Virus record (IMG/VR): IMGVR_UViG_3300025671_000505
Coordinates: 1 to 24,580 of that record
Length of the DNA stretch: 24,580 nucleotides
Direction: 5' to 3' (one strand)
Source: a virus
Shown: piece after piece, positions 871-2,742 of the stretch
Numbering within the stretch: the stretch's first letter is position 1
Layout: every line of letters begins with the position of its first letter
Program-made: the position numbers and the translations under genes
The notes under the pieces: generated by a model
What the model saw: the letters and a program-made list of their open reading frames with translations, nothing else
What the model was told of the DNA's origin: nothing
The model's database searches: none

Positions 871-890
871 CTCGTCAAGTCATGAACTAA

Positions 891-962
891 CTATAGCCTA
901 AGAATTAATCTTTAACCCTTAAAAACAAAGGTTTGAAAAATGCAACAATTCTTGGGCTATAG
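891..962 (+). ncRNA. Structured RNA element, copy 1
   Basis: The arms CTATAGCCTAAGAATT (891-906) and AATTCTTGGGCTATAG (947-962) form 16 consecutive base pairs, one of them a G-U. Inside is a core with a small AACC/GGTT helix (914-917 with 930-933) and an unpaired 3' side including GAAAAATGCA (934-943). The same core recurs in the copy at 1079-1146, where the outer arms differ in sequence but still pair. Compensating change of this kind points to a folded RNA rather than a DNA site. I do not recognise the family: the conserved bases of hammerhead and twister ribozymes are not apparent. It lies just upstream of a tRNA-like sequence, so a role in tRNA transcript processing is possible but unproven. 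Confidence 0.65.
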
Positions 963-967
963 TTTAC

Positions 968-1044
968 AGTCCGGTATCTCCTCAAGCTTATACCTTGTAG
1001 AAAGAGTAGTTGGTTACACGTGGGTTCAAGCCCCACCCGGACTA
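968..1044 (+). pseudogene. tRNA-like sequence, probably a degenerate tRNA
   Basis: The acceptor arms AGTCCGG (968-974) and CCGGACT (1037-1043) pair perfectly. The T arm is textbook: GTGGG, loop TTCAAGC, CCCAC (1020-1036), followed by discriminator A1044. The total of 77 bases is normal for a tRNA. The middle does not fold as a normal D arm plus anticodon arm. The best local hairpin is CAAG/CTTG with loop CTTATAC (983-997), and no 5-base-pair anticodon stem follows at the expected place. I therefore assign no anticodon. It may be a decayed tRNA, a highly divergent one, or an RNA that mimics the acceptor/T half. Confidence 0.55.
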
Positions 1045-1050
1045 CTACTG

Positions 1051-1078
1051 GTCGTAGGTTCAAGTCCTGCTGGGCGCA
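1051..1078 (+). pseudogene. Orphan tRNA 3' half (T arm plus 3' acceptor strand)
   Basis: GTAGG, loop TTCAAGT and CCTGC (1054-1070) form a good T arm with one G-U pair. It is followed by TGGGCGC (1071-1077) and A1078, as in the 3' end of a tRNA. The matching 5' acceptor strand (GCGCCCA or a wobble version) is not found in the preceding 200 bases or directly downstream. No D arm or anticodon arm precedes it. It begins 6 bases after the tRNA-like sequence ends and abuts the second structured element. It is most simply the remnant of a deleted tRNA gene. Confidence 0.6.
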
Positions 1079-1146
1079 CTATGTCACCCATTTAACTTTT
1101 AACCCTTTAAAAAATAGGTTTGAAAAATGCACCTTGGGTGGCAGAG
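1079..1146 (+). ncRNA. Structured RNA element, copy 2
   Basis: This is the second copy of the element at 891-962. Arms CTATGTCACCCA (1079-1090) and TGGGTGGCAGAG (1135-1146) give 11 of 12 pairs, one being G-U. The internal core, from TTTAACCCTT to GGTTTGAAAAATGCA, is nearly identical to copy 1, while the arms differ and remain complementary. It starts directly after the orphan tRNA 3' half. The last six bases of the 3' arm can instead pair with 1174-1179, so the element may have two alternative folds. TAGGTTTG (1115-1122) also fits the Bacteroidota -7 promoter pattern TAnnTTTG, but copy 1 lacks the TA, so a promoter reading is weaker. Confidence 0.65.
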
Positions 1147-1206: not shown

Positions 1207-1279
1207 GCGTCAGTAGTTCAATTGGTAGAGCAGCGGTCTCCAAAACCGCAAGTTGTAGGTTCGAGCCCTACCTGACGCG
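1207..1279 (+). tRNA. tRNA-Trp (anticodon CCA)
   Basis: This is a full cloverleaf. The acceptor is GCGTCAG/CTGACGC, and the D arm is GTTC...GAGC with GG in the loop. The anticodon arm is GCGGT, loop CTCCAAA, ACCGC, and the T arm is GTAGG, TTCGAGC, CCTAC. The discriminator is G, as expected for bacterial tRNA-Trp. CCA is not encoded, so the host must add it. The CCA anticodon reads only UGG, so this tRNA does not support reading UGA as Trp. Confidence 0.96.
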
Positions 1280-1294
1280 CAAAATTAACAGTCA

Positions 1295-1759: not shown

Positions 1760-1801
1760 GTTGATAAGATAATCCCTATTATCTTAGGTTTATCTCTCAA
1801 C
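1760..1801 (+). other. Two-tier hairpin after tRNA-Arg
   Basis: TAAGATAAT (1765-1773) and ATTATCTTA (1778-1786) form a perfect 9-base-pair stem with loop CCCT, and GTTGA/TCAAC (1760-1764 with 1797-1801) can close it from outside. There is no following T run, so it is a poor intrinsic terminator. A processing site or a barrier at the 3' end of the tRNA transcript is more likely. Confidence 0.5.
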
Positions 1802-1880
1802 GTAATGTATGAATAATCATACCCAATCAGGTATAATTGACGTAATGTATGAATAATCATACCCAATCAGGTATAATTGG
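1801..1880 (+). repeat. 40-bp tandem repeat, two copies, duplicating a gene start
   Basis: Positions 1801-1840 and 1841-1880 are the same 40 bases with a single difference at the last base. Each unit contains an ATG followed by codons for MNNHTQSGII. Only the second copy leads into the long downstream frame, because 40 is not a multiple of three. The first copy encodes a 15-residue frame (1809-1856) whose stop overlaps the real start at 1849. Each unit also holds two overlapping inverted repeats, GTATGA-ATAA-TCATAC and ATACC-CAATCA-GGTAT, which cannot form at the same time. Confidence 0.95.
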
Positions 1881-2432: not shown

Positions 2433-2586
2433 ATACAAAGGCTACACAACAGCAAGAACTAACTCAGGTGAGACGTTATACGGATACTTGAGTGATTCAG
2501 ATGCTGTAGGTTTGACTTACTTCAGCAGAGACAGGAAGACAGGTGAGATTCATCACGCCTGTCTAGGTAAAGTATTGAACCTTTAA
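2425..2586 (+). CDS. Small hypothetical protein
   Basis: The product is 53 residues from the ATG at 2425 (MTEYKGYTTARTNSGETLYG), which overlaps the previous stop. A GTG at 2401 in the same frame is a less likely start because it would lie deeper in the upstream gene. The composition suggests a small beta-rich domain (ETLYGYLSD, LTYFSRDR, IHHACLGKV). I do not recognise a family. The stop TAA lies inside the first copy of the 22-bp repeat that also supplies the next gene's start. Confidence 0.65.
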   Translation: MTEYKGYTTARTNSGETLYGYLSDSDAVGLTYFSRDRKTGEIHHACLGKVLNL

Positions 2587-2742
2587 CACCAAAGAGAAAT
2601 GACACTACAAGAAGCAGTAACACTACTTGAGAATCACAACAAGTGGCGCAGAGGTGATGATACTTTAGAGATGGTAGAGCCTAAAGATTTAGGAATAGCA
2701 ATTGAATTGATTGTAGAATACTTTAACACCAAAGAGAAATGA
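2581..2742 (+). repeat. 22-bp direct repeat pair bounding a small gene
   Basis: The 22 bases at 2581-2602 recur exactly at 2721-2742. Both copies include a start codon (ATG at 2599 and at 2739). The first copy contains the stop of the upstream gene. The second encodes the last residues (YFNTKEK and stop) of the small gene lying between the copies. The 140-bp unit therefore has the form of a cassette inserted at, or duplicated from, a gene start. Confidence 0.9.
2599..2742 (+). CDS. Small phage protein, HNKWRRG type
   Basis: A 47-residue protein, MTLQEAVTLLENHNKWRRGD followed by PKDLGIAIELIVEYF. This pattern (LL..HN.WRRG...., then a helix with I..A+..++..+) is one I know from short conserved proteins of many tailed phages; the function is unknown. 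It is predicted to be two helices. Its start comes from the first copy of a 22-bp repeat and its last codons from the second, and the stop overlaps the next start. Confidence 0.75.
   Translation: MTLQEAVTLLENHNKWRRGDDTLEMVEPKDLGIAIELIVEYFNTKEK

What the first reader, a model, noticed from the sequence alone, without database searches (positions are those of the whole stretch)
891..1146. Two copies of an unidentified structured RNA with stem arms that differ yet still pair
Elements at 891-962 and 1079-1146 share a nearly identical core (TTTAACCCTT ... GGTTTGAAAAATGCA). Their outer arms differ, CTATAGCCTAAGAATT against CTATGTCACCCA, yet each is complementary to its own 3' arm (16 of 16 and 11 of 12 pairs, including G-U). 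Conserved loop with covarying stem is the signature of a functional RNA. I cannot match it to a ribozyme or riboswitch I know. The copies flank a tRNA-like sequence and an orphan tRNA 3' half, so it may belong to tRNA biology, be a mobile RNA, or mark processing sites.
Basis: seen in the sequence. Interest (0 to 1): 0.72.

Follow-up and report, generated by a model that had tools for sequence, protein, structure and literature searches.

The report
Twin RNA hairpins flanking phage tRNAs
An uncultured phage carries two copies of a small RNA hairpin around damaged tRNA genes; the copies keep the same core while their stems have changed but still pair, an anatomy like the signals at which phage T7 RNA is cut by RNase III, though no relative was found to prove it.

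Summary
Two elements, 891-962 and 1079-1146, share a 40-nt core (35/40 identical), while their outer arms are only 10/24 identical yet pair in 23 of 24 cells; 6 of 12 outer pairs changed on both sides. Pairing exceeds chance: only copy 1 itself reaches its score among random places in the window, and copy 2 is reached at about 1 in 1000. Neither copy matches Rfam. No further copy was found in 80 related phage loci, 36 whole related records, IMG/VR or 84,980 GTDB genomes, so covariation rests on two paralogues only. Copy 1 precedes a degenerate tRNA; copy 2 starts right after the orphan 3' half of the tRNA-Met that relatives keep here. In relatives that tRNA-Met spacer holds other unnamed structured RNAs. 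The layout (variable lower stem, asymmetric internal loop with conserved long side, conserved upper hairpin, copies in one direction) is that of phage T7's early RNase III sites, which I folded as a yardstick. Best reading, at moderate confidence: a cis-acting processing hairpin of the tRNA-region transcript. A small RNA, ribozyme, promoter/leader or mobile hairpin are not excluded. New variant of a known kind; interest moderate.

The parts
889..906 (+). Copy 1, 5' arm of the outer stem (18 nt)
   Evidence: Inverted repeat with 947-964, 94% complementary; RNAfold
905..944 (+). Copy 1 core, 40 nt: predicted inner stem 911-920/928-937 with C916-U932 mismatch, A-rich apical loop, start of the long side of the asymmetric internal loop (AAAUGCAAC, 938-946)
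   Evidence: Direct repeat with 1092-1131, 88%; fold
947..964 (+). Copy 1, 3' arm of the outer stem
968..1044 (+). Degenerate tRNA-like sequence: good acceptor (AGUCCGG/CCGGACU) and T arm, no normal D arm
   Evidence: RF00005 29.0 bits, E 0.0011; not called by ARAGORN
1048..1078 (+). Orphan 3' half of tRNA-Met(CAT); the upstream CGGACT could be the fusion point with the tRNA-like sequence
   Evidence: 93% over 30 nt to intact tRNA-Met of a relative at the same locus
1079..1090 (+). Copy 2, 5' arm of the outer stem
   Evidence: Pairs 11/12 with 1135-1146
1092..1131 (+). Copy 2 core, 40 nt
   Evidence: 88% identical to 905-944
1135..1146 (+). Copy 2, 3' arm of the outer stem; GGCAGAG (1141-1147) can also pair with UUCUGCC downstream
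1207..1280 (+). Intact tRNA-Trp(CCA) downstream of copy 2

Best explanation
Two paralogous RNA hairpins that act in cis on the + strand transcript of the tRNA region. Lower stem (12-18 bp, sequence free, pairing kept), asymmetric internal loop (4-7 nt on the 5' side; AAAUGCAAC or AAAUGCACC on the 3' side), upper stem (8-9 bp with a C-U mismatch) and A-rich apical loop together form a double-stranded substrate with a fixed weak point. Most likely mechanism: the host's RNase III-type enzyme binds the stem and nicks in the conserved 3' side of the internal loop (by analogy with T7, near AAAAU/GCA), cutting the precursor before and after the 968-1078 segment. Shown: two copies, conserved core, compensated arms, + strand genes, tRNA remnants between them. 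Inferred: transcription, the inner stem, cleavage, the enzyme.
For: Arms only 42% identical yet 23/24 cells paired, 6 of 12 pairs changed on both sides; pairing rare by chance. The wobbles in the arms (U899-G954, U1084-G1141) and inner stem (U913-G935) are G-U on the + strand and would be A-C on the other; copy 2 folds better on the + strand (z -2.7 v -0.9). All nearby genes up to 17.9 kb and all tRNAs are on +. T7 sites R0.3, R0.5 and R1.1, folded here, have the same layout: similar upper hairpin (AAGG..CCUU) plus shared 3' internal-loop UAUGA, with lower stems of different sequence (UAGCGGAUA/UAUUCACUA, GUGAUA/UUAUCAC, AGAGGGACAA/UUGACCUUCU). R1.1 is a 60-nt hairpin with a 4/5-nt asymmetric internal loop from between T7 genes 1.0 and 1.1 (PMC6121014), cut by E. 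coli RNase III at one phosphodiester (PMC4858673). The tRNA-Met spacer of relatives holds other structured RNAs, so structure in this slot is common in the clade.
Against: No sequence kinship with T7 sites; only two copies, no homologue, no expression data. The upper stem is short and A-U rich and the 3' internal-loop side (9-10 nt) is longer than in R1.1. RNase III accepts many helices, so the layout is not specific. The flanked tRNAs are defective, so there is no obvious valuable product to release. RNase III of the unknown host was not examined.
Confidence: 0.4

Rival explanations
1. A small structured RNA with its own job (phage small RNA, protein-binding hairpin or RNA sponge), set beside tRNAs because tRNA maturation frees its ends.
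For: Copy 1 ends 3-5 nt before a tRNA-like sequence and copy 2 starts at the first base after a tRNA-Met 3' half. Relatives place other structured RNAs in exactly these spacers. GOLLD and ROOL RNAs of phages also sit by tRNA islands (PMC12286853).
Against: Both adjacent tRNAs are degenerate, so processing by RNase P or Z is doubtful; no target or partner known; not found in the nearest relatives.
Confidence: 0.25
2. A new small self-cleaving ribozyme: the conserved internal loop is the catalytic core and the outer stem is free to vary; two copies would cut out the tRNA segment.
For: Conserved unpaired core with freely changing, compensated stem; two copies flanking a segment; hammerheads are known in phage intergenic regions, some in multiple arrangements (PMC3088659).
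Against: No match to any ribozyme family of Rfam even at E <= 5; the hammerhead CUGANGA box is absent (sequence); the core is A-rich and partly explained by a simple stem; no homologues.
Confidence: 0.1
3. The 40-nt core is a promoter or translation leader, repeated because the same polymerase or ribosome reads it; the arms are secondary.
For: Both cores end in AAAAATG(CA): frames of 52 codons (from 940) and 14 codons (from 1127); other gene leaders here have CTTTAACACCAAAGAGAAATG (starts 2599, 2739). TAGGTTTG in copy 2 fits the Bacteroidetes -7 box TAnnTTTG.
Against: The 52-codon frame just reads through tRNA sequence, and the peptides after the two ATGs differ; copy 1 lacks TAnnTTTG and neither copy has the upstream TTG box at the usual distance; no further copy in 24.6 kb; it does not explain the compensated arms.
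Confidence: 0.1
4. A mobile or DNA-level hairpin: a 40-bp unit inserted into two palindromes, or remains of the rearrangement that fused the two tRNAs.
For: The elements bracket a rearranged segment; relatives have intact tRNA-Met and no element.
Against: No third copy in the window, relatives, IMG/VR or GTDB by the patterns used; no target duplication seen; wobbles favour RNA of one strand.
Confidence: 0.08
5. Decaying duplicates without function; the pairing of copy 2 is partly luck.
For: Copy 2 with flank folds no better than shuffles (z -0.8) and part of its 3' arm can pair elsewhere (1048-1190 fold).
Against: Neutral decay should not leave the core 88% and the arms 42% identical while keeping pairing.
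Confidence: 0.07

Closest known systems
RNase III processing signals of phage T7 early RNA (R0.3, R0.5, R1, R1.1, R1.3)
   Same: Hairpins of about 60 nt in one orientation between genes; R0.3, R0.5 and R1.1 share an upper hairpin and the 3' side of an asymmetric internal loop, with lower stems of different sequence that pair (PMC6121014).
   Different: No sequence similarity; longer internal loop; A-U rich upper stem; beside tRNA remnants rather than between protein genes; cleavage untested.
Stable RNAs of phage T4's tRNA cluster (species 1 and 2; from memory, a lead only)
   Same: Small non-tRNA structured RNAs in a phage tRNA cluster, function unknown.
   Different: No sequence comparison made; those are longer single-copy RNAs.
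GOLLD and ROOL RNAs
   Same: Phage RNAs of unknown function near tRNA islands; GOLLD env-38 lies downstream of a Met-tRNA (PMC12286853).
   Different: Hundreds of nucleotides with elaborate folds; Rfam models give no match here.
Spacer RNA families A and B of this phage's relatives (this work)
   Same: Occupy the same spacer next to tRNA-Met; structured; unnamed.
   Different: Different sequence and fold; single copy per phage seen; conserved between several phages.

Membership tests
T7-type RNase III processing signal | Hairpin with two helices separated by an asymmetric internal loop | tested here: met
   Folds of both copies; T7 yardstick
T7-type RNase III processing signal | Several copies per genome with conserved core and different, pairing lower stems | tested here: met
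   T7 yardstick
T7-type RNase III processing signal | Sequence kinship with the known sites (AAGGUC..GGCCUUUAUGA) | tested here: not met
   Core UUUAACCC..GGUUUGAAAAAUGCA differs; so it is not filed as a member, only as working alike
T7-type RNase III processing signal | Cleaved by RNase III in the internal loop | not testable with these tools
   Needs an enzyme assay or RNA end mapping
Any RNA family of Rfam 15 | Score at or above the family threshold | tested here: not met
   Only tRNAs at gathering threshold; at E <= 5 the elements give only miRNA/snoRNA chance matches far below threshold, on the - strand
Hammerhead ribozyme | CUGANGA and GAAA boxes in a three-way junction | tested here: not met
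   No CUGANGA in either copy (sequence); no Rfam hit
Intrinsic terminator | G+C-rich stem followed by a U run | tested here: not met
   No site at either copy
tRNA | Cloverleaf score | tested here: not met
   ARAGORN and Rfam call neither copy; only the 968-1044 neighbour is borderline

The most novel reading that the evidence does not exclude
A new class of small self-cleaving or trans-acting phage RNA, used in pairs around tRNA segments, whose conserved internal loop is the active part.
Probability: 0.12. Interest if true: 0.75.

Novelty: new variant of a known kind. Interest (0 to 1): 0.42.

Why it matters
If it is a processing signal, it shows that these uncultured phages mature their tRNA-region transcripts with repeated hairpins that arose independently of T7's, and it gives an RNA that can be tested directly with purified RNase III. 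Together with the two other spacer RNA families found in relatives, it suggests that tRNA spacers of this phage group are a rich, unnamed store of structured RNAs.

Tried and rejected
blastn against phages with copy 1 and with the copy 2 region: chance, apart from the tRNA-Met half. Covariance model R1: nothing beyond the two copies (best others E 0.066 and 0.13, judged chance). The 1295-1669 ORF as bait for nearer relatives: none. Idea that copy 2 is a worn form of family A (hairpin followed by AUGCAA): the likeness is a few bases only. attC site, terminator and permuted tRNA were considered; no 5' half of tRNA-Met was seen on reading the tRNA region, and a fusion of two tRNAs at CGGACT explains the orphan half more simply.

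Full report
What was checked. The window is a 24,580-base uncultured virus record with DNA polymerase, helicases, primase and exonuclease genes on the + strand up to about 17.9 kb. The tRNA region lies just behind the polymerase gene and a small nucleotide-kinase-like gene. Elements at 891-962 and 1079-1146 are as described. They share a 40-nt gapless repeat (905-944, 1092-1131; 35/40) and each is enclosed by its own arms.

Is it more than chance? Copy 1 folds far better than shuffled sequence (z -5.8), copy 2 moderately (z -2.7 over its exact length, -0.8 with flanks). With the core position fixed, a helix as good as copy 1 occurs nowhere else in the window and one as good as copy 2 at 0.14% of places. 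About 270 chance matches to the core patterns in IMG/VR form a natural control: one reaches copy 2, none copy 1. On a pair-wise alignment 6 of 12 outer pairs changed on both sides; sliding the partner by one column destroys the pairing (that alignment was placed by hand with N as spacer in copy 2). Core and arms differ in identity (88% v 42%, Fisher p 2e-4). This is what a conserved RNA core with a sequence-free stem looks like, but it is one comparison between two paralogues.

Which strand? The wobble pairs are G-U on the + strand (U899-G954, U1084-G1141, U913-G935), where the other strand would have A-C; copy 2 folds clearly only on +; the genes and tRNAs around are on +.

Surroundings. Nearest relatives by polymerase (79-55% identical over 162 aa) often carry an intact tRNA-Met(CAT) and tRNA-Arg(TCT), with tRNA-Leu in several. 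The window's orphan half at 1048-1078 is the 3' half of that tRNA-Met (93% over 30 nt to L004). Its upstream end meets the 3' end of a degenerate tRNA-like sequence (968-1044, 29.0 bits) at CGGACT, which occurs both in the acceptor of the tRNA-like sequence and in the anticodon arm of tRNA-Met of L004; a fusion at this short shared sequence is the simplest account (inference). Copy 2 begins at the base after the tRNA-Met end.

What stands in that slot in relatives. Two other structured RNAs, neither in Rfam. Family A (about 140 nt; L003, L005, L038, L055, L379) ends at tRNA-Arg, has 11 pairs with two-sided changes and a 5' CUCUGCC that matches the loop GGCAGAG of its 3' hairpin, also as UUUGUCC/GGACAAA and UCUGCU/AGCAGA, a probable pseudoknot. 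Family B (about 60 nt) fills the spacer behind tRNA-Met or before tRNA-Arg or tRNA-Lys in most of its loci. So structured spacer RNAs are common in this group, of different kinds.

Homologues of the element. None: not in 80 relative loci with a covariance model, not in 36 whole relative records, not by patterns in IMG/VR or GTDB genomes, not by blastn in phages.

Mechanism. As a yardstick I folded the early RNase III sites of phage T7 (site positions recalled from memory; DNA fetched, where the sites are not annotated). R0.3, R0.5 and R1.1 have similar upper hairpins and the same 3' internal-loop letters UAUGA, but lower stems of different sequence that pair. R1.3 has the hairpin but a short lower stem, and R1 a different internal loop. 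The literature gives R1.1 as 60 nt with an asymmetric internal loop, cut once by RNase III (PMC6121014; PMC4858673). The elements here show the same division of labour: fixed upper hairpin and fixed 3' internal-loop side, free lower stem, repeated in one direction. I therefore commit to a cis-acting processing hairpin, RNase III the likeliest enzyme, at 0.4. Shown: anatomy, repetition, compensation. Inferred: transcription, cleavage, enzyme.

Rivals. A free-standing small RNA (0.25), a ribozyme (0.1), a promoter or leader (0.1; both cores end in AAAAATGCA and open short frames), a mobile hairpin (0.08) and decay (0.07). None is excluded.

Membership. It is not a member of the T7 signal family by sequence; it is said only to work alike. 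It matches no Rfam family. Verdict: real, probably functional RNA, new variant of a known kind, moderate interest, limited by the absence of homologues.

Noticed in passing
L003:6993-7136, L005:7859-8003, L038:7325-7470, L055:4667-4814, L379: Family A: unnamed ~140-nt structured RNA directly before tRNA-Arg in several related phages, with 11 covarying pairs and a probable covarying pseudoknot (CUCUGCC/GGCAGAG, UUUGUCC/GGACAAA, UCUGCU/AGCAGA); no Rfam match.
   Followed up: partly
L006:7798-7856, L011:7506-7566, L012:7158-7216, L028:4033-4096, L038, L044, L054: Family B: unnamed ~60-nt spacer RNA (CUCGUCAUUUAUGACUG..CAGGUCACCGACACCUGUGAG) filling a spacer beside tRNA-Met, tRNA-Lys or tRNA-Arg; one copy (L028) lies away from any detected tRNA.
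   Followed up: partly
L011:7650-7776, L044:7431 region, L004:5740-5821: Another hairpin with a shared top (GTAG.TGCAA.ATGCTTAC) and different arms, before tRNA-Arg or tRNA-Trp.
   Followed up: no
window 968-1078; L004:3870-4235: Degenerate and partial tRNAs in the arrays; in the window a tRNA-like sequence appears fused to the 3' half of tRNA-Met at CGGACT.
   Followed up: partly
window 940-1098 and 1127-1171: Both cores end in AAAAATGCA and open short frames (52 and 14 codons before the stop); the first reads through the tRNA remnants.
   Followed up: partly
window 2581-2602 and 2721-2742; L004:4564 and 4715: Repeated gene leader CTTTAACACCAAAGAGAAATG before start codons, similar in a related phage; perhaps a promoter or initiation leader.
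   Followed up: no
window 1800-1879: Exact 40-bp tandem repeat with an inner palindrome-like part (GTATGAATAATCATAC) behind tRNA-Arg.
   Followed up: no
L006:7080-7815: A protein gene, by eye resembling a glycoside hydrolase (not searched), lies between tRNA-Met and tRNA-Arg, in the same slot.
   Followed up: no
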